Virus record (IMG/VR): IMGVR_UViG_3300042922_000577
Coordinates: 1 to 53,330 of that record
DNA length: 53,330 bases
DNA from: a virus
Direction: 5' to 3' (one strand)
The notes beneath the pieces are model-generated. The model was not told where the DNA came from, did no database searches, and was given only the letters and a program-made list of their open reading frames with translations. The position numbers were made by a program, and so were the translations under genes. Positions 1 to 18,336 of the stretch are shown here, one piece after another (positions within the stretch are counted from its first letter, which is position 1; every line of letters begins with the position of its first letter).

Positions 1-127
1 AATGTATCAGGTCTTTGGGGCGTTTTTCTTAGCGGAAAAAATTGGGTAGGGGGGCGATTTTCACCAGGGAATGGGTGGGAAAAGGCGATAGGGGGTGTGC
101 GTTTGTTCGTGCAGTTTTTTGGGGTGG
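1..127. repeat. 127-bp direct end repeat, left copy
   Basis: Identical to 53204-53330. The exact length of 127 bases equals a standard maximum k-mer of short-read assemblers, so this is more likely the overlap of a circularised contig than a biological terminal repeat. The sequence itself is G-rich and lies in the divergent control region between the two gene arms. It contains TGTGCGTTTGT at 96-106, the half-site also found in left-arm promoters. Confidence 0.95.
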
Positions 128-2229: not shown

Positions 2230-2702
2230 CCATGTTCGAATGTTGAGAACCGTTCTCACTGATGCACTCCTAGACACCGTTAGCTTTTACCCTATATAGG
2301 GTTTTCTAGGTGTTAATAGATACATAATGTTATTTATAACTAAAGTTAATGGTGTGTTAGGTGATATTAAGGAGAACGGTTCTCAATAAGGCCACAACCC
2401 CGCGCCACGACTGGGATGCCGACCCCCGACAAGCCCCAGACTGGCGAGAATCGGACATGAGACATACGCCCACCCCCTGACACACAGGCGCACACTCTCC
2501 CGAAACCCGCCCCAAAGAAACTACAAACACTACTTGCGTTTGTAGGGCGAAACACCCACAATGTTAGGTAGGGCGAATAGCCCGAAACCGGCCCCGCTGA
2601 GATATTCAAGCGGATGCTTCCCGGGACGTAGGCGGATGTTTCGCCCACCTCGCCCCGAATCTCGACCCCCGAACGACACCGAATCTTCGAAGGAGACACA
2701 CC
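2230..2702. promoter_or_regulatory. AT-rich palindrome-rich gap: candidate origin or operator region
   Basis: 473 bases without a convincing gene. Two 15-base sequences, TTGAGAACCGTTCTC at 2243-2257 and its exact reverse complement at 2372-2386, flank about 114 bases of A+T-rich DNA. Each is itself a GAGAAC-N-GTTCTC palindrome. Inside lie ACCCTATATAGGGT and several near-repeats of TTAGGTG/CTAGGTGTTAAT. Farther right, CTACAAAC (2521-2528) and GTTTGTAG (2538-2545) form another palindrome related to the left-arm promoter motif. The stretch 2387-2702 is an untranslated leader ending in AAGGAG before the gene at 2703. Origin or repressor-operator functions are inferences. Confidence 0.6.
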
Positions 2703-3053
2703 ATGTCCAACTCCGCACGCACGCAGCACGCCCGCGACGCCCTCCAGATGCGCCTGAGCACCGGCCCCAGCGCCCGCCAGACGTTCGCCCAGCGGCAGAT
2801 GGTGCACGCCATGACGATCCGCAGCCTGAAGCTCACCACCCCGCAGCGCCGCGCGCTGGACGCGATCGCCGAGCACCACACGGCCCCCATCCACCCGGGC
2901 AGCATCGTCACCGACCGGATGTTCTCCACCCTGGAGGGTCACGGCCTGGTGCGCTCCGACCCCGCCCGCCCGCACCGCGCCGCCCTGACCGACCTCGGCA
3001 TGGCCTACGCCCGCCGAACCCCCCGCACCGCCGCGAAGGGTGGCCGCAAGTGA
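2703..3053 (+). CDS. possible winged-helix protein
   Basis: 116 residues; ATG with AAGGAG about 9 bases upstream. Residues about 44-105 resemble a winged helix: a helix starting at TTPQRRALDAIAEH, a second region ending in DRMFSTLEGHGLV, and a wing-like segment with a conserved-looking LTDLGMAYA. The rest is basic and rich in Ala and Arg. This would fit a DNA-binding regulator or a small accessory factor. First gene after the palindrome-rich gap, a suitable place for a regulator that acts there. The family call is a pattern judgement only. Confidence 0.65.
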   Translation: MSNSARTQHARDALQMRLSTGPSARQTFAQRQMVHAMTIRSLKLTTPQRRALDAIAEHHTAPIHPGSIVTDRMFSTLEGHGLVRSDPARPHRAALTDLGMAYARRTPRTAAKGGRK

Positions 3054-3565: not shown

Positions 3566-3993
3566 CCGCCCCGGGCCAGATGGCCGCCGTCGAGGGCCGC
3601 ACGATGACGACCGCCTACGGGGACCGGATCACGTTCGAGGGGTACGAGCGGAACGGGGCGCCCGCGCACGATGAGTTCATCATGAAGATGCACGACCGCG
3701 GGATGGTCTTCCAGCTGGACCCGGCACACGTGGCACAGGCACTGAACGGGATCGTTCCCGGGCTGACCGTGAGCTACACCCCGGTGTACATCGGCGAGGA
3801 GACGCGCGCGGTGATCGACGCCGCCCGGGCGATGCTGGCCAAGTTCGTCGAGGGCCACCCGGACGCCCATCCGGCCGTGCTGAAGGCCTACCGCGCCGCC
3901 GTCGTGGACATGACCTACGCGCTGACCGCGTGGGCGGGGAGCTACGCCCCGGCGCAGGTGCGCGGCATCATCGAATCCGAGGTGAGCAAATGA
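3562..3993 (+). CDS. hypothetical protein
   Basis: 143 residues; ATGA overlap with the preceding gene. Mixed alpha/beta composition, with a long amphipathic helical region in the second half (AVIDAARAMLAKFVE and onward). No catalytic motif, membrane segment or metal site is visible. Part of the continuous plus-strand run 2703-5634. Confidence 0.7.
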   Translation: MTAPGQMAAVEGRTMTTAYGDRITFEGYERNGAPAHDEFIMKMHDRGMVFQLDPAHVAQALNGIVPGLTVSYTPVYIGEETRAVIDAARAMLAKFVEGHPDAHPAVLKAYRAAVVDMTYALTAWAGSYAPAQVRGIIESEVSK

Positions 3994-4655
3994 GCACCAC
4001 GATCCACACCCACCAGACGAGCTACAACGGCGGCGCATCCCGCAACGTCGGCGTGACCAACGGGAGTGAGCGCGTCAGCCTGGCGGTCTCCGACCCGGGC
4101 AGCCTCAGGAGCGAGATCGAGGCACTGGGGCTCTCCCCCGAGGAGGCGACCGGGCTCGGCGTGGCCCTGATCAACGCGGCGCAGAACGTCCGAGACGACC
4201 GCTGGGGCGGCCCGACCGACGACCTCGCGACCGCCGCCCGAGTGCTGGCCACCCTCGCCCAGGTGGGGAAGCCCGAGGATGCCCCTCAGGCGCTGACGCT
4301 GGCCGTTACCCGCCCCGTCGATCGTCAGGAGGTCGAGGACCTGATCACCGGCACCGGCGTCCTCTCCTACTCGTGGTGGCTGAACGTCGAGGATGCGCCC
4401 GACGCGATGGGCGGCACCGGCGATGCGTTCCTGTTCACTCACTGGGAGCCGGACACCGAGGGTGGAAGCGTTCAGACCACGGTCACCGCGCAGCAGATCG
4501 TGGACGCCGCCGCGCGGGTGATCAAGGGCGACGGCGCCAAGGTGGACGCGGCCAGCGCCCGCGACATGGCGAACGACACGCTGGGCTACGCCGACTCGAT
4601 CGCCGCCGACGCCGTGTTGCAGCTGGCCGTGTTCGGGCGGGTGATCTACGGATGA
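3990..4655 (+). CDS. hypothetical protein
   Basis: 221 residues from an ATGA overlap. The N-terminus is Ser/Thr/Asn-rich, followed by helical segments rich in Ala and Asp. A central stretch around EVEDLITGTGVLSYSWW has a beta-like pattern with three aromatic residues. No recognised family; soluble and acidic. Confidence 0.7.
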   Translation: MSTTIHTHQTSYNGGASRNVGVTNGSERVSLAVSDPGSLRSEIEALGLSPEEATGLGVALINAAQNVRDDRWGGPTDDLATAARVLATLAQVGKPEDAPQALTLAVTRPVDRQEVEDLITGTGVLSYSWWLNVEDAPDAMGGTGDAFLFTHWEPDTEGGSVQTTVTAQQIVDAAARVIKGDGAKVDAASARDMANDTLGYADSIAADAVLQLAVFGRVIYG

Positions 4656-4882
4656 GCCGTCGACTCGCCGCCCTCACTCTGGCGCTTACGGGAGCACTGG
4701 CCCTGATCGCCGGTGTCGTCGTCGGTACCCTCGGAGAGGCCGCTCAGGCGGAGGCCATCGAGACGGCGACGGTCCAAGAGGCGTTCGACGAGGGCTTCGC
4801 CGCCGGTGCCGAGTACGAGCGCTGGTTCTGCACCAACACCGTCACCCCCGCACCATCCACCCCCACGACCGAGGAGAACTGA
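4652..4882 (+). CDS. small exported or membrane-anchored protein
   Basis: 76 residues; ATGA overlap. The N-terminus has two arginines then a hydrophobic segment of about 22 residues (LAALTLALTGALALIAGVVVG) followed by small residues, consistent with a signal peptide or an N-terminal anchor. The mature part is acidic with one cysteine, and the C-terminus is Thr/Pro-rich. Function unknown. It resembles the larger anchored Ser/Thr/Pro-rich protein at 12230 in general plan. Confidence 0.65.
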   Translation: MSRRLAALTLALTGALALIAGVVVGTLGEAAQAEAIETATVQEAFDEGFAAGAEYERWFCTNTVTPAPSTPTTEEN

Positions 4883-4884
4883 TC

Positions 4885-5634
4885 ATGCCCCGTGGACCCC
4901 AGATTCTGAGCCCGCAGCAGCAGCGCATGCTGGAGGAGGCGCGCGCCGCGTTCCTCGCGTACGAGAAGGCCGAGCGCGCGGCCAAGGTTGAGTTCGAGGC
5001 GCTGATGGCGACCCGGACCCAGCAGCAGCGGATCGCCCTGGCCCGAGCGGTCGCGACGGCGGTCAACAACGGCGTGCCCAAGGCGCGGGTGAATCAGGAG
5101 GCGCTGGGCGTAACCACCCCGAACGCCTGGGTCCGATGGGCCGACCTCGCCGCCGCATTCACGCAGCAGGGCGTGCCCATGCCGAGCGCCCAGGGCGTCA
5201 CCCCGCTCCCGCCGATGGAGCACGCGCTCCCCATCCGCGTGCCCGAGACGATCCCGAGCGCGACGGACTGGCCCCTGCCCGCGACCCTCCAGGCGCACGA
5301 GCACGCCGGTGTGCTGTCGTTCATCGGCGACCCGCGCGACCGTCACCTCCGCGTGGTGTGGCCCGCGTACCCGTCCACGACTCCGGATGCCCCGGCGACC
5401 CTGGAGGGCGACGTGACCTACGACCCGTCCCTGCCCGGGCGGTGGCGCGCGACCCGTGACCCTCAGAACAAGCCCACCACGTTCGGGACCGAGACGGGTG
5501 CATTCACCTACGAGGTCGAGCAGCGCCGGGGCGCGTCGCCGGTGCGGCAGGCGTTGGACAGCTTCGTCGCCGCCGCCGAGCTCCCGCCGTACGAGGCTCC
5601 CGGCCTGGACGTGGACGAGGACGAGGGATTCTGA
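4885..5634 (+). CDS. hypothetical protein with acidic EGF-type C-terminal tip
   Basis: 249 residues; ATG with GAGGAGAAC upstream. Residues about 1-60 should form a long charged helix (QQRMLEEARAAFLAYEKAE and on). A short helix-turn-helix-like stretch follows (NQEALGVTTPNAWVRWADL), then a Pro-rich beta-type domain. The protein ends DVDEDEGF. Two other left-arm proteins (11793 and the likely SSB at 17756) end the same way, suggesting a shared docking tail. No enzyme function recognised. It closes an operon; the next gene has its own promoter. Confidence 0.75.
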   Translation: MPRGPQILSPQQQRMLEEARAAFLAYEKAERAAKVEFEALMATRTQQQRIALARAVATAVNNGVPKARVNQEALGVTTPNAWVRWADLAAAFTQQGVPMPSAQGVTPLPPMEHALPIRVPETIPSATDWPLPATLQAHEHAGVLSFIGDPRDRHLRVVWPAYPSTTPDAPATLEGDVTYDPSLPGRWRATRDPQNKPTTFGTETGAFTYEVEQRRGASPVRQALDSFVAAAELPPYEAPGLDVDEDEGF

Positions 5635-5646
5635 CCGAATCCGGAA

Positions 5647-5718
5647 ACAAATGCACATACTCATGTGCGTTTGTGTGCTAAGATCGTAGTATCCCAACCG
5701 AGCAGAAGGAGCCCTACC
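5647..5718 (+). promoter_or_regulatory. palindromic operator, extended -10 promoter and leader
   Basis: ACAAATGCACAT (5647-5658) and ATGTGCGTTTGT (5663-5674) form a palindrome with 12-bp arms, one mismatch and a 4-base spacer. TGC-TAAGAT (-10 at 5679-5684, with the TG of an extended -10) follows directly, and the leader ATCCCAACCGAGCAGAAGGAG ends at the GTG at 5719. A nearly identical unit occurs at 7342. The palindrome covers the -35 position, suggesting an activator or repressor site. Confidence 0.7.
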
Positions 5719-6303
5719 GTGCGAATCCACACCGACACCCTGACCCGCGAGAACATCCAGCAGGCGCTCATCGCCGAGATCGAGAAGGGCCGTATCGCCC
5801 GCCACGTCTCGTTCAAGGTGCTGACCGAGGGCGGCTCCCGCTCGCACCGCCGGAGCTTCGAGGTCCAGCTGGAGGCCGCCGAGCGCGACAACGGCCGCCG
5901 GGTGGGCAACTCCGGCAGCTACGGCGCCATGCGGCCCGAGCACGACGGCTACGCGGCCACGTACGACGAGTGGGGATGGCTCCTCGCCGCGCTGTACCAG
6001 ATCGACCCGGCGTTCATCGTCGGCACGGTGAAGCACCCGGTCTACGACGGTCGCGACGACTTCGACCACAAGACGGCGCTGACCTACAACCCGGAGAAGC
6101 TGATCAACACCCTGCGCTTCTACGGCGACCCGTACCCCATGGTGATCGGCCGCGCCGCGAAGACGAAGCGCGGCTACATGATCGGCCGACGCGGCGCCGA
6201 CCGTGCGAGCCACGAGGGCTACCGGTCTTACTGGGGCGGCAAGGAGCAGCCCCGCACGGTCGAAGAGGTGCGCGAGTTCGCCCGCCTGGAGGTGACCGCG
6301 TGA
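5719..6303 (+). CDS. hypothetical protein
   Basis: 194 residues. GTG start chosen because AGAAGGAGC lies about 8 bases upstream and the palindromic promoter is directly before it. Basic, with a helical N-terminus (RENIQQALIAEIEKGRIARH) and many Arg, Tyr and Gly in the C-terminal half, including KTKRGYMIGRRGADRASHEG, a pattern that could contact nucleic acid. No family identified. First gene behind one of the two strongest left-arm promoters. Confidence 0.75.
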   Translation: MRIHTDTLTRENIQQALIAEIEKGRIARHVSFKVLTEGGSRSHRRSFEVQLEAAERDNGRRVGNSGSYGAMRPEHDGYAATYDEWGWLLAALYQIDPAFIVGTVKHPVYDGRDDFDHKTALTYNPEKLINTLRFYGDPYPMVIGRAAKTKRGYMIGRRGADRASHEGYRSYWGGKEQPRTVEEVREFARLEVTA

Positions 6304-6485
6304 CCCACTCCCTCCCGATCCTGGACCCCGGCGAGGCCCGCCCGGTCCCCGCGGCGTCCGTCAATCACCGGTACGTGACCGAGGCGCTGGATCAGACCCT
6401 CGCCGCCGAGGTGGGGCGCTCCCTGGCCAAGCAGCGCCGCGGGCGCCGGAGCCTCTTCCCCGCGTTCTTCCGTTCCCGGACTTGA
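6300..6485 (+). CDS. small hypothetical protein
   Basis: 61 residues from a GTG in a GTGA overlap with the preceding gene. Proline-rich start, a central helix (EALDQTLAAEVGRSLAK) and a strongly basic C-terminus (KQRRGRRSLFPAFFRSR). No function assigned. The 62 bases after it contain an ATCCCA...AGAAGGAGC leader for the next gene. Confidence 0.65.
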   Translation: MTHSLPILDPGEARPVPAASVNHRYVTEALDQTLAAEVGRSLAKQRRGRRSLFPAFFRSRT

Positions 6486-6547
6486 CCCGGTAACGTACCC
6501 CCATCCCATAGCAGCACCCCGATTCACTGAACAGAAGGAGCACACCC

Positions 6548-6946
6548 GTGTCGAACACGCCCGCCAACATCACCCCGATCAACCCCTCCGCCGCCGACGA
6601 CCTCGCGTTCATCCGGTCGGAGGTGAAGAAGTCCAAGGGGGTGACCGAAGGCACGGTCGTCCGGTTCGACCGGGTGAAGCTCCGCCGCATCCGCCCCGCC
6701 GGAGTGCCCGAGGGTGCGCGCATCCCCCAGACCGAAGCTGTCGGCGTCGAGGAGTTCATCACCACCTACGCGGCGCTCTACGTCGGCGGCCGTTGGTACG
6801 TGACCGGCTCGCAGAGCGAGACCGCCCAGGGCCAGCCCTACACCTCCCGGCAGTTCTTCGACGACGTGATCGGCCACGCGGCCACGCGCAACGTCCAGAT
6901 CGCCACCAAGTTCGAGGCCGTCGAGCCCGAGGGCGAGGACGAATGA
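6548..6946 (+). CDS. hypothetical protein
   Basis: 132 residues; GTG with AGAAGGAGC about 9 bases upstream, after a leader containing ATCCCA (6503-6508) like other left-arm leaders. The middle region alternates hydrophobic and charged residues and reads as a small beta barrel or sandwich (TVVRFDRVKLRRI; LYVGGRWYVTG), and the end is acidic. An OB-like or nucleic-acid-binding fold is possible but unproven. Confidence 0.7.
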   Translation: MSNTPANITPINPSAADDLAFIRSEVKKSKGVTEGTVVRFDRVKLRRIRPAGVPEGARIPQTEAVGVEEFITTYAALYVGGRWYVTGSQSETAQGQPYTSRQFFDDVIGHAATRNVQIATKFEAVEPEGEDE

Positions 6947-7338
6947 CCGCGCGCCTGGCCATCTCGATCGAGGTGGACCCCGGCCGGAACACTCCCGGTG
7001 AAGCCATCCAGGCGGTGCAGGAGGCGCTGGAGGTGTACGGCCGGGTGTCCGATGGCACGACGACCCCCTGGGGCGGCCAGGCGCAGGCGCCCCGCGGCCT
7101 GATCTTCGGGACCAACACCCGCGGCGGCTCCAGCACCATCGGGACGTGGCGCCTGGTGGAGCGCGAGACGCGGCCGGAGGAGATCGCCGCCGCCGTCGTC
7201 GCCCGCCTGACCGAGGGGCGCACGCTCCCCGGCGAGGACACGGCCGGAGTCCTGGCCATCATCACCCGCGTGGCCGCCGAGGCCATTCGCGAGGACCGGA
7301 AGACCGCCGCGAACATCGTTCCCGACGACGACTTCTGA
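6943..7338 (+). CDS. hypothetical protein
   Basis: 131 residues; ATGA overlap. Begins with a beta-strand-like ARLAISIEVD, has a Gly/Ser/Thr-rich centre and a helical C-terminal half, and ends with acidic residues plus phenylalanine (VPDDDF), reminiscent of SSB-type tails. Followed by a palindromic promoter. Family unknown. Confidence 0.7.
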   Translation: MTARLAISIEVDPGRNTPGEAIQAVQEALEVYGRVSDGTTTPWGGQAQAPRGLIFGTNTRGGSSTIGTWRLVERETRPEEIAAAVVARLTEGRTLPGEDTAGVLAIITRVAAEAIREDRKTAANIVPDDDF

Positions 7339-7341
7339 GAA

Positions 7342-7413
7342 GCAAATGCACATAGGAATGTGCGTTTGTGTGCTAAGATCGCAGTATCAACTTCCCCGAC
7401 GAAGGAGCAGAAC
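7342..7413 (+). promoter_or_regulatory. second palindromic operator and extended -10 promoter
   Basis: CAAATGCACAT (7343-7353), spacer AGGA, ATGTGCGTTTGT (7358-7369), then TGC-TAAGAT (-10 at 7374-7379). The spacer differs from the copy at 5647 (ACTC) while the arms and -10 are conserved, the signature of a protein-bound operator rather than a chance duplication. The leader carries GAAGGAGCAGA before the GTG at 7414. Confidence 0.7.
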
Positions 7414-7758
7414 GTGAACGACAAGCACCCCGACGAGTACGTCGGACTGGCCATCAACGATGTGGGCGCGACCCTGCCTCCCGAGGCGAAGCTGTACGTG
7501 GTGATCGACACGCGGGACTGGGCGCACTTCGAGGAGATGGTCCAGTACCTCACCGCGCTCGAACTCCCCGGCCTGAACCCGGTCCAGATCGAGCGTCCGA
7601 CCACGATCTACGCGGTTCCCACGGCCGTCCGCCGCAACGCGGACTTCACCATCGGCATCACGGTCCAGGCGCCGAGCGTGACCCGCCCCCGCCTCCCTGA
7701 GGTGGACCCCGCAACGGCGCGCGCGGAGGAGGTGCTGGCCCGTGTCTCTGGTTCCTGA
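7414..7758 (+). CDS. hypothetical protein
   Basis: 114 residues. GTG chosen because GAAGGAGCAGAAC lies directly upstream. Alpha/beta pattern: strand KLYVVIDTRD, helix HFEEMVQYLTAL, strands TTIYAVP and DFTIGITVQ, and an acidic helical end. No recognised family. Its 3' end overlaps the next gene by 17 bases. Confidence 0.7.
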   Translation: MNDKHPDEYVGLAINDVGATLPPEAKLYVVIDTRDWAHFEEMVQYLTALELPGLNPVQIERPTTIYAVPTAVRRNADFTIGITVQAPSVTRPRLPEVDPATARAEEVLARVSGS

Positions 7759-8215
7759 GAAGCGCCTCCGCCCCCGTGTCGGCACTCCGACGATCGAGGA
7801 GGTGGCCCGCCGCCTGTATGACCTGAACCCGGACGTGCACACGCACTCCGAGGATGGCCGCGTCGACTCGATGAAGCGCCCCCACTGGACGGCCGCGCGC
7901 TCGTACAACTCGTCGCAGTGGCGCCTGGCCATGCGGCAGGCGACGAACCTCGTGGACAACCTGGAGCGCCCGCCGTACGAACTCATCCACCGATTCCGTT
8001 CCGAGATGATGTTCGACCGCCTCCAGGGCATCGGCGACACCCGCCTGATCGAGGACATCGACCGGGCCATCCAGGGCTGCATCGAGCGCCTGCGTGACGA
8101 GACGGGCATCCAGGCCGACGTGGAGAAGGACGACCACTGGGCGCGCGTCGAGCCGCTGGTGCTGGATCACCTCGACGTGAACGAGGGCCTGTACTGGGGA
8201 CCGGTGACCCGATGA
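7742..8215 (+). CDS. hypothetical helical protein
   Basis: 157 residues from GTG. Starts inside the end of the preceding gene. Helix-rich with many Arg, Asp and His; no membrane segment or recognised motif. The sequence DRLQGIGDTRLIEDIDRAIQ may form the core of a helical bundle. Confidence 0.7.
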   Translation: MSLVPEKRLRPRVGTPTIEEVARRLYDLNPDVHTHSEDGRVDSMKRPHWTAARSYNSSQWRLAMRQATNLVDNLERPPYELIHRFRSEMMFDRLQGIGDTRLIEDIDRAIQGCIERLRDETGIQADVEKDDHWARVEPLVLDHLDVNEGLYWGPVTR

Positions 8216-8529
8216 GTCTGCGCAGCATCATCGAGGCCAGCTTCTACGACGGGAGCATGGGCGCCCTTGACCGCCATCAGGTGGAGGAGCAGATCGACGA
8301 GATGGTTCGCGGGATCGAGGATGCCACCCGCATCATCACGATCAAGCTCCCGAAGAACCCGGCCCACAACCCGCATGCCAAGATCACCGGCGGGTGCGCC
8401 GTGGCCACCGAGTGCACCGACTCGACGGGGGAGCACCACACCCTGGTCATCTACGACGAGACCGGCGCCGGAGAGGCGGACGTGCGTGAGCGCTACAGCC
8501 ACATCACGCGAGTGGAGACGATCGCATGA
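8212..8529 (+). CDS. hypothetical protein
   Basis: 105 residues; ATGA overlap. N-terminal helical section, then a beta-type section with hydrophobic alternation (RIITIKLPK; HHTLVIYDETG). Two cysteines (GGCAV, TECTD) flank a short loop. Unknown function; coupled to the zinc-site protein that follows. Confidence 0.7.
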   Translation: MSLRSIIEASFYDGSMGALDRHQVEEQIDEMVRGIEDATRIITIKLPKNPAHNPHAKITGGCAVATECTDSTGEHHTLVIYDETGAGEADVRERYSHITRVETIA

Positions 8530-8768
8530 CCGAGCACATCAGCATCCGCAGCTTCTACCACATGATCACCTGTTCGATCTGCAAGAAGTCCGTCCAGTCC
8601 CGACTCGGCGGCCGGGGCGAGACGTACAAGATCGCCCGTGAGCACGCCCGTCAGCGCCTCGCCGAGGGCTGGAAGCTCTACATCGGGCGCGGGCGCCGGT
8701 GGTACTGCCCGGACCACGAACCGAGTCGTGGCCACACCATGCATCAGCTGGGGGTGGATCAGGCATGA
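8526..8768 (+). CDS. small zinc-finger-like protein
   Basis: 80 residues; ATGA overlap. Contains CSIC near residue 16 and CPDH near residue 62, a C2-C/H arrangement that would bind one zinc, separated by a basic helix (KIAREHARQRLAEGWKL). Small one-zinc proteins of this shape are common in actinophages with no assigned function. Confidence 0.7.
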   Translation: MTEHISIRSFYHMITCSICKKSVQSRLGGRGETYKIAREHARQRLAEGWKLYIGRGRRWYCPDHEPSRGHTMHQLGVDQA

Positions 8769-9025
8769 CCGACGCAACGTTCGACCTCGCATCGAAGGTT
8801 CACCCCGGCGAGGGTCGCCTCTGGCTCATCATGCACGAGCCCCGCAAGCCGAAGACGCCGCTGCGCCTGGAGCTTCGCGCGACCGTGCTCCGCGACGGCA
8901 AGCCGCCCCGCCTGGAGTTCACCGAGATGGTCACGTACGCGGAGACCCAGGCCACCCCCGAGGCGCTGGAGGAGGCCGCCCAGCGTCTCCTGGAGGCCCA
9001 GAAGTTCGTGGGGGTGTTCCTGTGA
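8765..9025 (+). CDS. hypothetical protein
   Basis: 86 residues; ATGA overlap. Beta-rich N-terminal two thirds (GRLWLIMHEPR; LRLELRATVLRDG; RLEFTEMVTYA) and a C-terminal helix rich in Glu and Ala. No recognised family. Confidence 0.65.
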   Translation: MTDATFDLASKVHPGEGRLWLIMHEPRKPKTPLRLELRATVLRDGKPPRLEFTEMVTYAETQATPEALEEAAQRLLEAQKFVGVFL

Positions 9026-9378
9026 GCATCGAGCCCAACACCGCCATCGGCCCCGCGCGCGCCGGAGACGGGCCGACCCGCCCCGGCCGCCTCACCACGC
9101 ACGAGGAGCAGCGCCAGGAGGTCATCCGCAAGATGACGACCGAGGCGACCGAGCAGGGCGTGACCGAGGTCAAGGAGCGCGTGACGTGGCCCGAGGGTGA
9201 CGAGACGGTCGTCGTCGTGAGCTTCACGAAGGAGCACATCGACGGCGAGCCGGTGTACCTGCCGGACCGCGTGGTCGAGTACCTGCCCTCCGGCGCCGAG
9301 GTTCCGCGCGACCCGGATGCGGTCCTCCGCCGCCTGCGCGCCGAGGTCGGCGAGATGTACGAGAAGGGGCTGGTCTGA
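9022..9378 (+). CDS. hypothetical protein
   Basis: 118 residues; GTGA overlap. The N-terminus is Pro/Gly-rich, then a helix (HEEQRQEVIRKMTTEA), a three-strand-like region (VTEVKERVTWPE; TVVVVSFTKEH) and a charged C-terminal helix. Unknown function. Confidence 0.65.
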   Translation: MSIEPNTAIGPARAGDGPTRPGRLTTHEEQRQEVIRKMTTEATEQGVTEVKERVTWPEGDETVVVVSFTKEHIDGEPVYLPDRVVEYLPSGAEVPRDPDAVLRRLRAEVGEMYEKGLV

Positions 9379-9716
9379 TGGGTAGCGGAGTCCCGATCCA
9401 CTGGACGTACGATTCCTACCTGCGCGCCCAGCGCCCCCGGCACTTCCGTCGTCCCGCTGGCCTGAAGCCGGTGAGCGGCGGCCGGTGGTCTATCCGGAAA
9501 TACCACGTCCGCGAAGGGCAGAAGGCCTGGCGAGCGTGGACCGAGCGCGGCACCAGGGCCAATCGCTGGTCACGTCGATTCCACACCCAGGCCGAGGCGT
9601 TCGCGTGGGCGGCATTCGTGTCCGGCATCTACGCCGACCGGACCATCCCACCCTCCCTGAAGGATCAGGTGATCCGAGGTCGGGTCCAGGATCAGCGGGC
9701 GGCAGAACGGCGATGA
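9378..9716 (+). CDS. basic hypothetical protein
   Basis: 112 residues; TGATG overlap. Very basic (about one residue in five is Arg or Lys) with many Trp, Tyr and His. The pattern GRWSIRKYHVREGQKAWRAW resembles a beta-hairpin, and the region that follows (SRRFHTQAEAFAWAAF) a helix, as in small phage-integrase N-terminal (AP2-like) DNA-binding modules. No catalytic domain follows, so an integrase is excluded. Possible DNA-binding protein. Confidence 0.65.
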   Translation: MGSGVPIHWTYDSYLRAQRPRHFRRPAGLKPVSGGRWSIRKYHVREGQKAWRAWTERGTRANRWSRRFHTQAEAFAWAAFVSGIYADRTIPPSLKDQVIRGRVQDQRAAERR

Positions 9717-9913
9717 CGGGACGCGGGCGGCCGGTGGCCGAGACGATCGAGGAGGCGACGTTCCTGTTGTCCTGCGGCGAGTCTCCGGAGCAGGTCGCCT
9801 ACATCCTGGGCGTGAAGCCCCAGTCGGTGGCGCGGACCGCGCGCCGTGGCGGCGACACTGAACTGGCCTTGATCTTCGAGGCCCTGAGAAAGACATGGAG
9901 CGAGTTCGCGTGA
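9713..9913 (+). CDS. small helix-turn-helix protein
   Basis: 66 residues; ATGA overlap. Residues about 26-47 form a clear helix-turn-helix (SPEQVAYILGVKPQSVARTA), of the kind found in sigma region 4 and small regulators. No other domain. It directly precedes the helicase gene and overlaps it by four bases. A candidate for the regulator that binds the repeated left-arm palindrome, by proximity and fold only. Confidence 0.7.
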   Translation: MTGRGRPVAETIEEATFLLSCGESPEQVAYILGVKPQSVARTARRGGDTELALIFEALRKTWSEFA

Positions 9914-11571
9914 CCCAGCTGACCCCCTACAACTTCCAGCAGGCCGACATCAACGCGCTCATGCGCGGCGGTGGAACGGGCCTGGTGGTCGCCGAGGTGG
10001 GCGCCGGGAAGACCATGATCGCCGCGGGCGCGGTCGCGCAGATGCGCCCCGCCTCGACGCTGATCCTCGCCCCCCAGGGCACGCACGAGACCGTCTGGCG
10101 GAAGACGTTCACCGGCTTCTTCGATACCGACCCGGAGAGCCCCACGTACGGCGAGTGGATCGACGGCGTGGCGCCGGACATGCCGGTGTTCCGGATCGAC
10201 TCATCGGAGCCCGGCAAGCGGGCCATGTCCGACCTGGAGTTCAACACGCCGGGCGTCTACCTGATGACCCCGCAGCTGTTCACGAGGTGGAGCCCGATTC
10301 ATCTCCGCCCGGACATGACGATCGTGGACGAGTTCCACCTGTTCGGCAACTCCGACACCAAGGGCGGGAAGCTCATCCGGAAGTTCTCCGGATCGACCGG
10401 CGCCCGGATGCCGATGTCCGGCACGATGGTGCGCAACAAGTTCGAGAATATGTGGACCGCCATGCGGTTCGCCTACCCCGAGCGCGGCAAGCCCGGCGAC
10501 ATCGCCGACGTGTCGAAGAACCGGTGGATCGACGACAACTGCGCCACCGAGTACGACTTCCACGCACCGGGTAACCGGAAGGTCGTCGGCGAACTGAACC
10601 CCGGCGAGTTCGTCGAAAAGGTGCCGGTCTACCGCCAGCACTTCAAGCGCCAGGCGTGCTGCGAGTTCCACCCGGACGGCTTCCTGTCGCACCTGCCCGA
10701 GCCGGTGCTCATCCAGGAGACCGTCGAGCTTCTGCCCGAGCAGAAGGCGGCCATCATGCAGATGGAGCGCGACTACCTCGCCTACCTGAACGTGGCCACC
10801 GAGGAGTGGCAGAAGCTCCCGCCCGAGGAGCGCAAGAAGCGCGCCCTGGTCACGAAGGTGCCGATCGTCCGCACGACCCGCATCGAGCAGATGACCCTCG
10901 CTGTCCCCTCGATCCTGCCGCGCGAGTGGAAGGGCAAGCCGGTGAAGATCGACGGCGTGCTCCAGCCCGAGCGCTGGTGGGGGACCGAGGGCGAGCAGTT
11001 CCAGTGGATCGAGGTCAACGGCGAGGACTTCATGCAGTCCCTCGACGAGAAGTTCGGCACGGCGGAGTGGGACGTGGTGTTCGCCCCCGACGCCAAGAGC
11101 CCGAAGCTCGATCGCCTCGTGGAGAAGTACCGCGAATACGACGAGCCCATGGTGGCCGCGACCTCCAGCCAGAAGTTCGCCGAGCTTGCCGTGAACCGGC
11201 TGAACGGCATGGGCATCCGGGCGTTCGAGTGGTCCGGCGTGAAGAACCAGACCGAGCGCGACGCCGCGCTGGCCGCCTTCGAGCGCGGCGAACTCGACAT
11301 CATCGTGGGCCAGACCGACGCCATCGGCACCGGCATCGACGGCCTCCAGCTGGCCAGCGGCATCCTCGTGCGCCTGAACCGCTCCGGCGATGTGGCGGGC
11401 GAGACGCAGCTGGAAGGCCGCCTGGACCGGCGAGGGCAGAAGCGCGAGACTGGCGTCATCGCCATCGAGATCATCGCCGAGGGCACCCGCGATCTCGACC
11501 GCGTGCACTCGCAGATCGAGAAGCGCCTGAAGCTGAACCGCAGCTTGCGCCGCAGCGTCACCGCGGCATAA
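9910..11571 (+). CDS. SNF2/DEAD-type superfamily 2 helicase
   Basis: 553 residues if begun at the GTG that overlaps the previous stop; an ATG five codons earlier is the alternative. The motifs of a superfamily 2 ATPase are in order: Walker A EVGAGKT (about 29-35), DEFH in the Walker B place (about 139-143), SGTMVRN as motif III, QTDAIGTGIDGLQLA as motif V and LEGRLDRRGQK as the arginine-finger motif VI (about 500). The R-x-GQ form and the spacing are typical of SNF2-like phage helicases that remodel DNA or protein-DNA complexes during replication and recombination. Its stop codon sits inside the next promoter's -10. Confidence 0.9.
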   Translation: MTQLTPYNFQQADINALMRGGGTGLVVAEVGAGKTMIAAGAVAQMRPASTLILAPQGTHETVWRKTFTGFFDTDPESPTYGEWIDGVAPDMPVFRIDSSEPGKRAMSDLEFNTPGVYLMTPQLFTRWSPIHLRPDMTIVDEFHLFGNSDTKGGKLIRKFSGSTGARMPMSGTMVRNKFENMWTAMRFAYPERGKPGDIADVSKNRWIDDNCATEYDFHAPGNRKVVGELNPGEFVEKVPVYRQHFKRQACCEFHPDGFLSHLPEPVLIQETVELLPEQKAAIMQMERDYLAYLNVATEEWQKLPPEERKKRALVTKVPIVRTTRIEQMTLAVPSILPREWKGKPVKIDGVLQPERWWGTEGEQFQWIEVNGEDFMQSLDEKFGTAEWDVVFAPDAKSPKLDRLVEKYREYDEPMVAATSSQKFAELAVNRLNGMGIRAFEWSGVKNQTERDAALAAFERGELDIIVGQTDAIGTGIDGLQLASGILVRLNRSGDVAGETQLEGRLDRRGQKRETGVIAIEIIAEGTRDLDRVHSQIEKRLKLNRSLRRSVTAA

Positions 11572-11613
11572 GATACAAACGCACATCCCATTCACCGAGC
11601 AGAGGAGAACCCC
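11569..11613 (+). promoter_or_regulatory. half-site promoter and leader
   Basis: TAAGAT (11569-11574) is directly followed by ACAAACGCACAT (11575-11586), one arm of the palindromes at 5647 and 7342, then ATCCCATTCACCGAGCAGAGG before the ATG at 11614. Here the half-site lies downstream of the -10 rather than upstream, so a bound protein would block instead of help transcription. Confidence 0.6.
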
Positions 11614-11793
11614 ATGGGTGCAACACCCACGCAGGATCAGATCGCAGACGCCGAGAACCGGGCACAGGACATCATCGACGAGGGTGGTTCGCGCTGGCCC
11701 GGGATGTCCTACGAGCAGGGGGTGGTCAACGCGATCCGCTGGATGAACGGCGACACCGACGAAGACCCGACCCGTGACGAGGACGACGCCTGA
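11614..11793 (+). CDS. small acidic hypothetical protein
   Basis: 59 residues. ATG preceded by CAGAGGAGAA. Acidic and helical, ending in a run of Asp and Glu. First gene after the half-site promoter, stop overlapping the next start (TGATG). Function unknown. Confidence 0.65.
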   Translation: MGATPTQDQIADAENRAQDIIDEGGSRWPGMSYEQGVVNAIRWMNGDTDEDPTRDEDDA

Positions 11794-12230
11794 TGGCCTC
11801 GCGTGCCGCGCTCCTGAAGCGCAACCCCCTCGTCATCGCGTCGCGTCAGTTCCTGACCGATAACGCGGTCAACCCCGACCGGGTGGACATCGACTCCCTG
11901 CGCGCCCAGGCGTTCGGCGACAAGTCGGTCCAGGTGCGGGCCGAGGTCATGCTGACCATGCCCGCCGACGACTTCTGGCAGGCCATCCGCGACGCCCAGG
12001 AGCAGATCGCCGCCGAGGCCGCCGAGGAGGCGCGCCTGGCCGACCAGGAGGCGCACGAGGTCGCCGTCGCCGAGCAGGGCGAGGCCGCGTTCCAGGCCAC
12101 CGAGGCCGAGGCGGAGCAGATCGCAGCCCTCGGCAAGCAGCTGGGCGTCGAGTCCAGCGAGACCTTCGCGGCAACCGTCGCGGAGTTCGACGGTCACACC
12201 ACGGCCGACGACGGAGACGAGGGATTCTGA
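11793..12230 (+). CDS. acidic helical protein with EGF-type C-terminal tip
   Basis: 145 residues; TGATG overlap. The middle (about 65-125) is a long Ala/Glu-rich segment with coiled-coil character. The C-terminus is acidic and ends DDGDEGF, matching the ends of the proteins at 4885 and 17756. It lies between the helicase and the exonuclease genes, so a scaffold or accessory role in replication is plausible. No enzyme motif. Confidence 0.7.
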   Translation: MASRAALLKRNPLVIASRQFLTDNAVNPDRVDIDSLRAQAFGDKSVQVRAEVMLTMPADDFWQAIRDAQEQIAAEAAEEARLADQEAHEVAVAEQGEAAFQATEAEAEQIAALGKQLGVESSETFAATVAEFDGHTTADDGDEGF

Positions 12231-12895
12231 TGACCAGTCGACAGTTCGGTTTCGCACTGAAGGTGCTCATCGTCGCGATCGTCGTGGCAGGCCTCGCCCT
12301 GTTCGGGATCGCCGCCGCCGCCATTATCAACGCCACCCCGGCCGCCGCGACCGAGGAGTGGACGCCGCCGCCCGCCGAGCAGGAGCCCGCGCTTCCTGCC
12401 GATGGCGTCGAGTCCCTGACCTACGCCGATGGCGCCTGGACCATCACCCTGTCGTCGGCCGACGCCTCCGAGGTGAAGCTGATCAACCCCAGCCCACAGA
12501 TCATCGCGTGCTCCGAGCACGACGGTCAGTCGAAGAACGGACATCCGGTATGCGACAAGACGACGTACACGTTCCCGACGACGGCGCGCTGCGTGATGGT
12601 GCAGGTGGACTGGACGGGGAACGTCTACAACTCGACGGACCCATGGAGGTGCCACGAGGGCGGCGAGCCCTCTTCATCGCCGACGCCGACGACATCCCCG
12701 ACGCCAACCACGTCACCGTCACCGACCTCGCCCGAGCCCGAGTCGTCCACGCCTCCTTCGAAGCCGAGCCCTTCCCCTTCGGAGACGACTGGGCCAGGGA
12801 GCGAGCCCGCCAGTCCCTCATCGCCTCGGTCATCGACCCCCGCCCCGGCATCACCCGCCTCACCGGCGCCTGAGCCCCTGGTGGCCACGGGATGA
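12230..12895 (+). CDS. membrane-anchored Ser/Thr/Pro-rich exported protein
   Basis: 221 residues; TGATG overlap. A hydrophobic segment at about 9-35 (VLIVAIVVAGLALFGIAAAAI) serves as signal anchor. A domain of about 100 residues with four cysteines follows (IACSE, PVCDK, ARCVM, WRCHE), suggesting two disulfides outside the cytoplasm. The C-terminal 75 residues are almost only Ser, Thr and Pro (repeats of SPTPTT type), a stalk- or wall-spanning sequence and possible glycosylation target. Unusual inside a replication cluster. A surface role such as exclusion of other phages is possible but not shown. Confidence 0.75.
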   Translation: MTSRQFGFALKVLIVAIVVAGLALFGIAAAAIINATPAAATEEWTPPPAEQEPALPADGVESLTYADGAWTITLSSADASEVKLINPSPQIIACSEHDGQSKNGHPVCDKTTYTFPTTARCVMVQVDWTGNVYNSTDPWRCHEGGEPSSSPTPTTSPTPTTSPSPTSPEPESSTPPSKPSPSPSETTGPGSEPASPSSPRSSTPAPASPASPAPEPLVATG

Positions 12896-13695
12896 GTGAG
12901 CCCACACTGGGTGAAGCCCTGCCGTCTCGGATCGGCGTGTTCGACACCGAGACGGACGGGGTGGACCTGGAGGACACGCGCATCATCACGGCCTTCATCG
13001 GCGTGATGGACACGGCCACCGGCGCGGTCATCGAGCGGCACGAGTGGGTGCTCCAGCCCGAGCGGCCGATCCCGACCGTGGCGAGCGACATCCACGGCTA
13101 CACCACGGAGCGCGCCGAGCGCGAGGGTGTGGGGCGGCGCCTGGGCCTACTTCAGATCGCCGAGCAGCTGATGCGCCTGGGGCTGAACACGCCGATCGTG
13201 GCCATGAACGCGATCTACGACTTCACGATCCTGGATCGTGAGCTAGGCCGCGTTGGTCTCGACGATGAGTTCGGCAGTCCGATCGAGCTTTGTGAGCGGG
13301 ACGAGACCGGCGCTGTCATTTGGCCGCTGGTGTTCGATCCGATGGTGTTCGACCGAGCGATCGACAAGTACCGGAAGGGCAAGCGGACGCTCGTGGACCT
13401 CTGCAAGGTCTACGGGGTGCCGGTGGAGGCGAACGCGCACGACGCCGAGGCCGACTGCCGCATGGCCGGGCGCGTCGCGATCAAGCTCATGGGCCATTCC
13501 CGGCTCCAGGACTTGACCATCGAGGAGGTCCACCGGAAGCTCATCGCGACGCACCGGTCGAACTCGCTGAGCCTGGCCGACTACTGGCAGAAGACCCTGA
13601 ACCGGCTCTCCGGCCAGGAGCGTGCCGACAAGGTGGCAGCCATCGCCGAGGTGCGCGGACGGGCCGGTCTCTGGCCGTGTCTGCCCCGCACATGA
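12892..13695 (+). CDS. DnaQ-like DEDDh 3'-5' exonuclease
   Basis: 267 residues; ATGA overlap. Exo I is FDTETDG (Asp18, Glu20). A second acidic site follows in NAIYDFTILD at about 105, and the end of the fold carries NAHDAEADCRMAG at about 180, giving the His and Asp of the DEDDh class. The length suits a stand-alone exonuclease of the DnaQ/epsilon family, which removes nucleotides from 3' ends. No DNA polymerase is present in the genome, so it may proofread with, or compete with, the host replicase, or trim ends in recombination. Confidence 0.85.
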   Translation: MSEPTLGEALPSRIGVFDTETDGVDLEDTRIITAFIGVMDTATGAVIERHEWVLQPERPIPTVASDIHGYTTERAEREGVGRRLGLLQIAEQLMRLGLNTPIVAMNAIYDFTILDRELGRVGLDDEFGSPIELCERDETGAVIWPLVFDPMVFDRAIDKYRKGKRTLVDLCKVYGVPVEANAHDAEADCRMAGRVAIKLMGHSRLQDLTIEEVHRKLIATHRSNSLSLADYWQKTLNRLSGQERADKVAAIAEVRGRAGLWPCLPRT

Positions 13696-13717
13696 ACCAC
13701 ACGAATCGGAGTACGAC

Positions 13718-14152
13718 ATGAGCGGATTCGACCAGGCCCGAATCGCCGGAGTCGTCGGGGTGGCGAAGGGAATGAGCCCATGGTTTACGAAGAAGGCCGA
13801 CGAGATCCTGATGCGGATCAAGACCGACACGCACGACGACGTGATGCTCTATCACGACGCGGTATCGGTCCTGGTGGCTGCTCGTGGCGTGCTCAACCTC
13901 GTCGCGAACCTGCCCCTCGACGAGGCCATGAAGCGCCTCAGCGAGGCGGCGCGGCCGGGCCCGTGGCGTGCGTACGAGACGGTGCAGGCCGACAACTTCA
14001 TCGTGGAGGAGTCGCAGGGACTCTTGAACGGCCCCGGCCCGGTCATGGGGCCGTCGTACGACAAGTCGACCGTCGAGTACGTGGTCGCGCTCGTCAACGC
14101 GCACCGCGCCACGCTCGACGCCGCCGAGCCGACCGGGGAGGAGAGCCGATGA
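13718..14152 (+). CDS. hypothetical protein
   Basis: 144 residues; ATG with CGGAG about 8 bases upstream. The N-terminus and centre are helical (KADEILMRIKTD; LNLVANLPLDEAMKRLSEA), the end Ala/Glu-rich. Possibly a small alpha-helical accessory protein. No motif recognised. Overlaps the next gene by 4 bases. Confidence 0.65.
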   Translation: MSGFDQARIAGVVGVAKGMSPWFTKKADEILMRIKTDTHDDVMLYHDAVSVLVAARGVLNLVANLPLDEAMKRLSEAARPGPWRAYETVQADNFIVEESQGLLNGPGPVMGPSYDKSTVEYVVALVNAHRATLDAAEPTGEESR

Positions 14153-14394
14153 GCCTCGCCGCAGCACCCCGAGATGCGAGCTGGTGGCAGCACCCCGACG
14201 TGCACTCGTTCAAGGTCGTGCACGCGGACAACGGCGACGCCTTCGCACAGTGCAACACGGGCCAGCCGCTCTGCGACTCGCCGCGCTGGGAGGACGCCCG
14301 CGAGGTGCCCGCCGGCGCGCGGTGCCGACGCCGTGCCTGCGCTGCAGCGTTCGCCGCCGCAGACTCCGGTTCGACCGGATCGGAGGATGACTGA
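14149..14394 (+). CDS. small cysteine-containing hypothetical protein
   Basis: 81 residues; ATGA overlap. Two Trp near the N-terminus (SWWQHP), then four cysteines (QCNTGQPLC and, later, RCRRRAC) that could hold one zinc. The C-terminus is acidic (GSEDD). Function unknown. Confidence 0.65.
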   Translation: MSLAAAPRDASWWQHPDVHSFKVVHADNGDAFAQCNTGQPLCDSPRWEDAREVPAGARCRRRACAAAFAAADSGSTGSEDD

Positions 14395-14425
14395 CCTCGA
14401 CTTGCACTACCCGGCCACCTGGCCA

Positions 14426-14469
14426 TAGGATACAAACGCACATCCCAACCACGAAGGAGCAGAACCGCA
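14426..14469 (+). promoter_or_regulatory. half-site promoter before the annealase gene
   Basis: TAGGAT (14426-14431), then ACAAACGCACAT (14432-14443), then ATCCCAACCACGAAGGAGCAGA up to the ATG at 14470. Same order as at 11569: the half-site is downstream of the -10. Confidence 0.6.
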
Positions 14470-15678
14470 ATGAGCGAACCCACCACCACGGTCGAAGAGG
14501 TCGAGCGCTCCGGCGCCCCCGCCGCTCTCGACCCGTTCGGCCGCCTGAACTCGACGGTCACGAACTTCATCGCCGAGAACGTCGAGGGTGACGGCATCCA
14601 CGCCGCCCTCTGGGCCGCGAAGGTCGCCCTGCCCGCGATCGAGCGCAACGGTCAGCTGACCCTCGGGTCCAACAGCGTCGCGTTCACCAAGGTCGACGAC
14701 ATCCGCAAGGCGCTCTACCCGTTCTTCGCGCAGTTCGGCATCATGGCCTACCTCGAACTCGTCTCCTCCGACGAGACGCTTCAGGTGGCCGAGGAGCCCT
14801 GGACGCAGGCGCAGGCCGTCAAGTCGGACGGCACGGTCGGCAACGGCGGCATCATCGGCAACACCGGCCGCCCGATCCGCGACGGCCGCATTCCGACGAC
14901 CCGCATGTGGGCCTGGGTCGAGTACCAGATGCGTTTCACCTTCATCCTCGACGGCAGCCAGGTCGTCGTCGGCCCGGTCAAGGGCTCGGCGTACGACACG
15001 AACTCCGACAAGGCCACCGGCAAGGCGACCACCGCGGCGATCAAGCGCATCCTCGCCGAGACGTTCGACATCGTGGACGAGAAGGAGGAGGACAACGACT
15101 CCAACAACCACGAAGACGACAACCGCGCGGCCACGACCGACCGGCGTGTCCCGCAGGAGGGTGCCGACCGTGGCACCCAGGCACGCGGTGCGGCGGCGCC
15201 CGGCGCATCCGCTCGCCCCGGCCGCCCCAGCCGCGCGAAGAAGGCCGAGGAGCCCGCAGCCCCGGCCGCACCCGTCGAGGAGAAGCCCGCAGCGGCCCCC
15301 ACGCCGCCCGCGGCGCCCGAGCCCGCTGTCGAGACCCCCGCGCCCGCCGCCGAGGCGCCCGTGGCCCCGCAGCAGCCCTCGGACGAGGCCATCGCGGCGG
15401 CCGACACCACCACCGGCGAGGTCGTCGACGAGACGCCCGCGCCCACGGTCCAGCCCGAGACGCCCCCGGCGCCGCCCACCGCACCCATGCCCGACGCACT
15501 CGCGGCGGCCAAGGGTCGCGTGAAGGCGGCCAACGGCAAACTCGGCCTGTCGTCGGCGGAGGTCGATGCCATCGCCGCCCAGGTCACGGGCATCGAGACC
15601 CGCGCCGAGTGGATCACGAAGGGCACCGCCGTCGCGAAGCTCGCCGACGCGCTGGAAGCCAAGGTCGCGGCTCTGTGA
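14470..15678 (+). CDS. erf: ERF-family single-strand annealing protein
   Basis: 402 residues; ATG with GAAGGAGCAGA upstream. Residues about 20-205 carry the ERF-superfamily pattern: an initial helix, then TKVDDIRKALYPFFAQFGI, a central beta sheet, and KATGKATTAAIKRILAETFDI near the end of the domain. After an acidic stretch (EEDNDSNNHEDD) comes a linker of about 110 residues of Ala, Pro and Glu, then a short helical C-terminal domain. ERF proteins anneal complementary single strands and circularise or recombine phage DNA. It works with the Cas4-like exonuclease and SSB downstream. Confidence 0.78.
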   Translation: MSEPTTTVEEVERSGAPAALDPFGRLNSTVTNFIAENVEGDGIHAALWAAKVALPAIERNGQLTLGSNSVAFTKVDDIRKALYPFFAQFGIMAYLELVSSDETLQVAEEPWTQAQAVKSDGTVGNGGIIGNTGRPIRDGRIPTTRMWAWVEYQMRFTFILDGSQVVVGPVKGSAYDTNSDKATGKATTAAIKRILAETFDIVDEKEEDNDSNNHEDDNRAATTDRRVPQEGADRGTQARGAAAPGASARPGRPSRAKKAEEPAAPAAPVEEKPAAAPTPPAAPEPAVETPAPAAEAPVAPQQPSDEAIAAADTTTGEVVDETPAPTVQPETPPAPPTAPMPDALAAAKGRVKAANGKLGLSSAEVDAIAAQVTGIETRAEWITKGTAVAKLADALEAKVAAL

Positions 15679-16223
15679 CCGGCATCACCAAGGGGGCGAC
15701 GGTCCGCGCTCTGAAGCGTGGCACGAGCACGATGGGGCAGGCCCGTATCAGCTACCAGAAGGGCGACGAGCTTCTGGTGACGTACGTCCGGAAGGACGGA
15801 TACCTGAAGGTCCAGCACATCCGCAGCGACCGGTTCGTCGGCCGAAGCTTCCTCATCGAATCCGAGGATGTCGAAGGACCGCTCCGCCCCCTTGGTGAGG
15901 TGCCGGAAGGCTCCATCGCCGCCGACGATCCGCGCCTCGACTGGCTGTGGGAAGACGCCGAGCGCGTCGCCAATATGTCCGGCTTCTGCACCGAGTACGA
16001 CAAGCTACTGAAGGAACTGAACCTCCCGGGCCGCCTGCGTACGCACACGGTCAAGATGCTCACCGGCGACGGCATCGAGATCGTCGCCAAGGTGAAGGCT
16101 CGCAGCCTCCGCCAGGCCGAGGAGCGCCTGCGCAAGCAGCTGCACACGCACGAGATCAACGAGACATCTATCGAGGGCCGCGACACGTCGCTCATGCTCT
16201 CGGGAAGCTACGAGGTGGAGTAA
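15675..16223 (+). CDS. hypothetical protein
   Basis: 182 residues; GTGA overlap. The first 65 residues resemble a small SH3-like barrel (TKGATVRALKRG; YQKGDELLVTYVRKDGYLKV). The middle is helical and the end beta-like, with many Arg and Lys. Possibly nucleic-acid-associated. Unassigned. Confidence 0.7.
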   Translation: MTGITKGATVRALKRGTSTMGQARISYQKGDELLVTYVRKDGYLKVQHIRSDRFVGRSFLIESEDVEGPLRPLGEVPEGSIAADDPRLDWLWEDAERVANMSGFCTEYDKLLKELNLPGRLRTHTVKMLTGDGIEIVAKVKARSLRQAEERLRKQLHTHEINETSIEGRDTSLMLSGSYEVE

Positions 16224-16438
16224 TGGGTACCGCAGAGAACGACTCCCGCACGACGACCTACACGTTCACCAAGGACGACCTCCTGAAGCTGGAGGCGGCG
16301 ATCAAGCTCGGGGGCAAGGCCCTGGTTCAGACGATGGACGTGACCGACATCGAAGGTGCCGAGCGATCCGAGGCGCTGTACGACTGGATGCTCGCGATGC
16401 TGAACGACATCACGGAGCAGCTGCGAGGTCTCCAGTGA
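16223..16438 (+). CDS. small hypothetical protein
   Basis: 71 residues; TAATG overlap. Predicted almost wholly helical after a Thr-rich N-terminus (TTTYTFTKDDLLKLEAAIK), acidic. Unknown function. Confidence 0.65.
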   Translation: MGTAENDSRTTTYTFTKDDLLKLEAAIKLGGKALVQTMDVTDIEGAERSEALYDWMLAMLNDITEQLRGLQ

Positions 16439-16695
16439 CCCACTACACCGACAACCCCGGGATGGTCCGGGTCGACTACTACAAGCCCGGCGGCAAGTGG
16501 TACATGACTGAAGCGCACGACATGAGCGAGTTCTACGACGACTCGGACATCCACGAGGCGGTGCGCCAGATGCTGAAGAAGGCCGACCGGTACCTGCCCC
16601 ACTTCACGATCGTCGTGCAGGAGCCGTACCACCGAAACGCCTACCCGGTCATGCTGATCGCTGACGACGTGCGTGAAGGGCTGGCCGCTCGATGA
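16435..16695 (+). CDS. small hypothetical protein
   Basis: 86 residues; GTGA overlap. Aromatic-rich (several Tyr, Trp) with a beta-like start (GMVRVDYYKPGGKWYM), a central helix and a beta end. Unknown. Immediately upstream of the Cas4-like gene and coupled to it. Confidence 0.65.
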   Translation: MTHYTDNPGMVRVDYYKPGGKWYMTEAHDMSEFYDDSDIHEAVRQMLKKADRYLPHFTIVVQEPYHRNAYPVMLIADDVREGLAAR

Positions 16696-18334: not shown

Positions 18335-18336
18335 TC

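What the first reader, a model, noticed from the sequence alone, without database searches (positions are those of the whole stretch)
5647..14469. A phage-wide palindromic operator family in left-arm promoters
Full palindromes ACAAATGCACAT-N4-ATGTGCGTTTGT occur at 5647 and 7343, upstream of an extended -10 TGC-TAAGAT, with different spacers but conserved arms. Half-sites ACAAACGCACAT occur at 11575 and 14432, directly downstream of TAAGAT/TAGGAT. A related palindrome is at 2521-2545 and a half-site TGTGCGTTTGT at 96-106. Opposite placement relative to -10 suggests one protein that activates some promoters and represses others. All sit only in the left arm. The arrangement recalls start-associated sequences with inverted repeats described in cluster K mycobacteriophages, but the sequence differs.
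Basis: partly seen in the sequence, partly recalled or inferred. Interest (0 to 1): 0.65.

Follow-up and report, generated by a model that had tools for sequence, protein, structure and literature searches.

The report
Repeated phage operators at early promoters
A phage, probably of soil actinobacteria, carries the same 12-letter DNA signal at four early-gene promoters, twice as a full mirror-image pair and twice as a single half, most likely the docking sites of one regulator protein that turns these genes down; this kind of control is common in phages, but the sequence is new.

Summary
Two 28-bp palindromes (5647-5674, 7342-7369) abut an extended -10 (TGC-TAAGAT). Two identical 12-bp half-sites (11575-11586, 14432-14443) directly follow TAAGAT/TAGGAT. 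The 11-mer ACAAACGCACA occurs five times, against none in 100 shuffles. All four sites lie in intergenic gaps that make up about 6% of the left arm. The general pattern TTG-N3-N16..19-TANNAT occurs in the window only at these two places. The palindrome promoters lack a -35; their two modules are 42/47 identical, with three of five differences in the N4 spacer. Both placements would occlude RNA polymerase, so one repressor can explain all four sites; activation at the palindromes is possible but unsupported. The motif was not found in IMG/VR, 84,980 bacterial and archaeal genomes or GenBank phages; the nearest relatives (Clavibacter CMP1, helicase 39%) lack it. It works like the ESAS promoter-plus-inverted-repeat elements of cluster K mycobacteriophages but is not a member. 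The regulator is unidentified, and no transcription or binding data exist. Ordinary phage regulation with a new sequence.

The parts
5647..5674 (+). type A palindrome 1, ACAAATGCACAT-ACTC-ATGTGCGTTTGT
5676..5684 (+). extended -10, TGC-TAAGAT, of type A promoter 1 (no TTG-type -35)
   Evidence: promoter function inferred
5719..6303 (+). gene downstream of type A promoter 1 (194 aa, PHROG 18547, unknown function; about 60% identical homologues in Squash-like Microbacterium phages)
7342..7369 (+). type A palindrome 2, GCAAATGCACAT-AGGA-ATGTGCGTTTGT
7371..7379 (+). extended -10, TGC-TAAGAT, of type A promoter 2
   Evidence: promoter function inferred
7414..7758 (+). gene downstream of type A promoter 2 (114 aa, no family match)
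11545..11550 (+). -35 TTGCGC of type B promoter 1 (inside the 3' end of the helicase gene)
11569..11574 (+). -10 TAAGAT of type B promoter 1; its TAA is also the helicase stop codon
11575..11586 (+). type B half-site ACAAACGCACAT (followed by CCCA)
11614..11793 (+). gene downstream of type B promoter 1 (59 aa, weak PHROG 6680 match, unknown function)
14402..14407 (+). -35 TTGCAC of type B promoter 2
14426..14431 (+). -10 TAGGAT of type B promoter 2
14432..14443 (+). type B half-site ACAAACGCACAT (followed by CCCA)
14470..15678 (+). gene downstream of type B promoter 2: Erf-like ssDNA annealing protein (402 aa)
95..106 (-). 11/12 half-site ACAAACGCACAC followed by CCC, in the contig-end repeat (same site as 53298-53309); no -10 beside it
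2521..2545 (.). loosely related palindrome CTACAAACACTACTTGCGTTTGTAG, different spacing; membership doubtful
2703..3053 (+). candidate regulator: 116-aa protein with a winged-helix-like layout by eye; unproven
   Evidence: sequence; low-confidence model, pLDDT 49; no database match

Best explanation
These are the operators of one DNA-binding regulator at four promoters read by the host's main sigma factor in the early (left) arm. Type A promoters (5647, 7342) are extended -10 promoters whose upstream part is a 28-bp dyad. Type B promoters (11545, 14402) are -35/-10 promoters with one 12-bp half-site over the start point. The inner hexamers GCACAT-N4-ATGTGC are centred 10 bp apart, one helical turn, and the outer ACAAA/TTTGT flank them, as expected for a dimeric helix-turn-helix protein. 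Shown: the sequences, their numbers, spacing and intergenic placement. Inferred: that they are promoters, that one protein binds all of them, and the sign of the effect. The protein is unidentified; candidates are the proteins at 2703, 4885, 9713, 21584 and 22045, or a host factor.
For: Repetition far above chance. All four sites fall in intergenic gaps that sum to 1,489 nt of about 24.5 kb. TTG-N3-N16..19-TANNAT occurs exactly twice in the window, both strands, and both times abuts a half-site; TGNTANNAT occurs on the + strand only at the two dyads. Type A modules match at 42 of 47 positions, with 3 of 5 differences in the 4-nt spacer (Fisher p 0.002). With +1 set 7 nt after the -10, leaders are 28, 28, 33 and 32 nt, the dyad spans -44 to -17 and the half-site about -6 to +6. 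No sigma region 4 or WhiB gene is detected. Helix-turn-helix candidates exist. Cluster K ESAS elements pair SigA-like promoters with inverted repeats, and their authors also suggest repression.
Against: No transcription or binding data. Strict sigma-70 scanning finds no promoter in 1-19,300, and the two promoter patterns taken alone are no commoner than in shuffles. A dimeric repressor should bind a half-site weakly. The missing -35 at type A would also suit an activator. No relative carries the motif, so conservation across phages is untested. The Fisher test rests on five differences between two copies that may be a recent duplication.
Confidence: 0.5

Rival explanations
1. Dual-function regulator: the dyad replaces the -35 and recruits RNA polymerase at the type A promoters, while the half-site at +1 represses the type B promoters. 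The nearest mechanism is T4 MotA, whose box centred at -30 replaces the -35 of middle promoters, about half of which have TGn.
For: The dyad centre falls at -30.5 on the assumed start; no TTG-type -35 at type A but a TGn extended -10; MotA geometry in PMC2988021.
Against: MotA is a monomer and its box is short, whereas a 28-bp dyad over -44 to -17 would cover the ground of sigma region 4. Extended -10 promoters need no -35. No MotA- or AsiA-like protein was searched for directly, and none was seen among the left-arm proteins scanned.
Confidence: 0.2
2. Promoter-module duplication without a regulator: the shared blocks are copies of two promoter modules, and the half-site is an initially transcribed sequence or leader element.
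For: Type B blocks share 23 of 24 bases from CATARGAT to CCCA, and type A blocks 42 of 47; the leaders resemble other leaders of this phage.
Against: Does not explain why the same 12-mer occurs in two unrelated modules on opposite sides of the -10 and in inverted orientation within the dyads, nor why type A differences fall mostly in the spacer.
Confidence: 0.14
3. RNA element: the type A palindrome works as a 12-bp hairpin in read-through RNA (processing or stability signal at the operon joint).
For: The + strand RNA folds into a full 12-bp stem in both copies; the imperfect positions are all G-U pairs on that strand.
Against: Not followed by a T run, and z-scores are modest (-2.3 and -1.7). 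The same 12-mer occurs as half-sites with no partner and no hairpin, beside a -10.
Confidence: 0.08
4. Sites for replication, packaging or nucleoid organisation that happen to sit in intergenic gaps.
For: One copy lies in the contig-end repeat and a loose relative lies near an AT-rich inverted-repeat region.
Against: Fixed spacing to the -10 within each of the two pairs; none in the structural arm.
Confidence: 0.04

Closest known systems
Extended start-associated sequences (ESAS) of cluster K mycobacteriophages
   Same: Several intergenic copies confined to the non-structural arm; a SigA-like promoter overlapped by an inverted repeat; regulator unknown, repression proposed (PMC3203893, PMC11373665).
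   Different: Different sequence; arms of 12 bp with fixed N4 instead of 15-17 bp with a variable spacer; no 13-bp SAS; two promoter classes; half-sites on their own; only four clear promoter sites.
T4 MotA-box middle promoters
   Same: A phage element centred near -30 replaces the -35 in front of a good (often TGn-extended) -10 (PMC2988021).
   Different: The MotA box is short, asymmetric and bound by a monomer; here a 28-bp dyad, and the same half-site also lies at +1 of other promoters.
Repeated palindrome ATCAACCNNGGTTGAT of Squash-like Microbacterium phages
   Same: Phage-specific repeated palindrome upstream of early genes, including the homologue of gene 5719 (10-11 copies per arm).
   Different: Unrelated sequence; a 16-bp site placed mostly just before the ribosome site and start codon rather than at a recognisable -10.
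Stoperators and operators of cluster A mycobacteriophage repressors (from memory, not tested)
   Same: One regulator with many dispersed sites.
   Different: Those are 13-bp asymmetric sites of a lysogeny repressor; no integrase and no HTH_3 repressor were detected here.

Membership tests
Cluster K SAS | 13-bp GGGATAGGAGCCC within a few nt of start codons | tested here: not met
   Sites are 12-bp ACAAAYGCACAT, ending 26-44 nt before the starts; definition
Cluster K ESAS | imperfect 15-17 bp inverted repeats with variable spacer, overlapping SigA-like -35/-10 and usually next to an SAS | tested here: not met
   Dyad of 12-bp arms with fixed N4, no -35 at the dyad promoters, no SAS
Cluster K ESAS (functional likeness only) | several intergenic promoter-plus-inverted-repeat copies in the early arm only | tested here: met
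T4 MotA-type middle promoter | box centred at -30 replacing the -35 in front of a -10 | tested here: inconclusive
   Dyad centre -30.5 on an assumed start, no TTG -35; start not mapped
T4 MotA-type middle promoter | MotA and AsiA homologues | not tested
   no direct search made
Temperate-phage repressor operators | integration gene and HTH_3-type repressor in the genome | tested here: not met
   PF00589, PF00239 and PF01381 not detected; controls rang
Phage-encoded sigma or WhiB-dependent promoters | sigma region 4 or WhiB gene in the phage | tested here: not met
Promoters of a phage single-subunit RNA polymerase | RNA polymerase gene (PF00940) in the phage | tested here: inconclusive
   No match, but the control did not ring either

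The most novel reading that the evidence does not exclude
One actinophage protein redirects the host polymerase: it takes the place of the -35 contact at the full dyads (a dyadic analogue of T4 MotA) while its single half-site over the start point shuts the recombination-gene promoters, making one 12-mer a two-way early switch.
Probability: 0.15. Interest if true: 0.6.

Novelty: new member of a known kind. Interest (0 to 1): 0.3.

Why it matters
Promoters and regulators of lytic actinobacteriophages are poorly defined. This gives four defined candidate promoters of two architectures sharing one operator half-site, a compact set for finding the regulator. It also suggests that phages with related early genes each carry their own repeated palindrome (compare the Squash-like phages), so the operator system may change faster than the genes it controls.

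Tried and rejected
Exact and relaxed motif scans of IMG/VR returned nothing. The single hit to TANGATACAAACGCACAT (L018) is a 38% GC contig with the match antisense inside a long reading frame: chance. GTDB genomes: none. blastn of the promoter regions against phages gave only weak hits, E about 3 or worse. A single-protein helicase scan found no relative; an alignment-based one found seven contigs, and these, CMP1, CN1A and Lifes have no exact copy of the half-site. Upstream of gene-5719 homologues there is no similar motif. A possible minus-strand half-site at 52491 (ACAAACGCCTAC) scores at background (8.7 bits) and was dropped. Structure prediction for the proteins at 2703 and 4885 gave low-confidence models (pLDDT 49 and 47), so no fold search was made.

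Full report
What the window is. The window is a 53,330-base virus record at 67.7% GC. Its first and last 127 bases are identical. A 127-base overlap is what a k=127 assembler leaves on a circular contig, so this is probably a complete genome of 53,203 bp (inference). Genes run rightwards to about 24.5 kb (early, DNA metabolism) and leftwards from there (structural). The nearest named relatives are Clavibacter phages CMP1 (helicase 39%, primase 33%) and CN1A, then Microbacterium, Curtobacterium and Arthrobacter phages, so the host is probably in the Microbacteriaceae (inference). No integrase, serine recombinase or HTH_3 repressor is detected, which suggests a lytic phage.

The observation. Both palindromes and both half-sites are present, with a one-base correction to the second palindrome. 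Type A: [A/G]CAAATGCACAT-N4-ATGTGCGTTTGT, then GTGCTAAGATCG[T/C]AGTATC. Type B: TTGC[G/A]C-N18-TA[A/G]GAT-ACAAACGCACAT-CCCA. The pattern TTG-N3-N16..19-TANNAT occurs exactly twice on both strands of the window, at 11545 and 14402. Such a count alone is not unusual (shuffles mean 1.2); it is the coincidence with the half-sites that is telling.

Chance. Exact half-sites: 5 against 0 in 60 shuffles. ACAAACGCACA: 5 against 0 in 100, and no comparable 11-mer in any shuffle exceeded 4 copies. In a matrix scan the family sites score 13.9-23.5 bits and the next best 9.9. Generic palindromes of this length are about as common in shuffles (5 against a mean of 4.2), so the case rests on the shared arms, not on symmetry as such. 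The left arm has only 1,489 nt in gaps of 20 nt or more, and all four core sites lie in them.

Geometry. Taking +1 as 7 nt after the -10 (an assumption), the type A dyad spans -44 to -17 (centre -30.5), the type B half-site about -6 to +6, and the leaders are 28, 28, 33 and 32 nt. The inner hexamers of the dyad are centred 10 bp apart, one turn of the helix, with ACAAA/TTTGT outside them, the layout expected of a dimeric (winged) helix-turn-helix protein (inference). The C form of the arm (ACAAACGCACAT) is the downstream arm of both dyads and is also the form of both half-sites; the T form is only the upstream arm. Comparison of the two type A modules shows 5 differences in 47, three of them in the N4 spacer (Fisher p 0.002), which fits selection on arms and -10 but rests on few events.

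Mechanism. Both placements overlap the polymerase footprint, so occlusion by one repressor accounts for all sites. That the palindrome promoters lack a -35 is compatible with an activator replacing it, as T4 MotA does at -30 (PMC2988021), but extended -10 promoters can function without a -35. An RNA hairpin model explains the type A stem, whose imperfections are G-U on the + strand, but not the lone half-sites.

The regulator. Weak helix-turn-helix matches exist for 9713 (Pfam HTH_29, E 0.004; PHROG 664), 21584 (HTH_Tnp_1, E 6e-5) and 22045 (PHROG 686, E 2e-6). By eye, 2703-3053 has the order of elements of a winged helix (LTTPQRRALDAI, MFSTLEGHGLVR, LTDLG), and 4885-5634, which ends just before palindrome 1, has a possible helix-turn-helix, but neither has a database match and both models are of low confidence. 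Nothing links any of them to the motif except position.

Relatives. No virus or bacterial genome searched carries the motif (one chance hit). The gene after palindrome 1 has homologues of about 60% identity in Squash-like Microbacterium phages, and there it follows a different repeated palindrome, ATCAACCNNGGTTGAT, present 11 times in 14.8 kb of Rudy (one copy with a mismatch) and 10 times in 22 kb of Squash. So the type of arrangement recurs while the sequence does not.

Known kinds. The best likeness is the ESAS of cluster K mycobacteriophages: 46-47-bp intergenic elements with a SigA-like promoter and an inverted repeat, for which repression by an unknown regulator has been proposed (PMC11373665; PMC3203893). 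The element here is not an ESAS or SAS by sequence or structure. I file it as a new member of a known kind: phage-specific, multi-copy promoter operators.

Noticed in passing
269-283, 2244-2258, 2371-2385: Three 15-bp boxes of 7-1-7 form (TGATAATCGTTCTCA, TGAGAACCGTTCTCA, GGAGAACGGTTCTCA) resembling Fur/Zur boxes of actinobacteria (resemblance from memory); two exact pattern matches against 0.02 expected.
   Followed up: partly
2243-2386: A very AT-rich stretch in a 67.7% GC genome bounded by two of these boxes and forming a 45-nt imperfect inverted repeat (71%) around CCCTATATAGGG; possible replication origin or control region.
   Followed up: partly
1-127 and 53204-53330: Exact 127-base repeat at the contig ends, the size of a k=127 assembly overlap; probably circular assembly rather than a physical terminal repeat.
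   Followed up: partly
L006 (Rudy) and L022 (Squash): A 16-bp palindrome ATCAACCNNGGTTGAT repeated 10-11 times, mostly just before start codons in the early arm of Squash-like Microbacterium phages.
   Followed up: partly
L007 at 6386, 7118, 7456: CMP1 has three copies of ATTGAATTTTCA, two preceded by CCTCACATA and ATCCAAT, perhaps its own promoter-linked repeat.
   Followed up: no
52313-52386: tRNA-Phe (GAA) on the minus strand, the only tRNA found in the window.
   Followed up: no
18928-19193: A 266-nt gap of 68% GC between the gene ending at 18927 and the primase, without an obvious gene.
   Followed up: no
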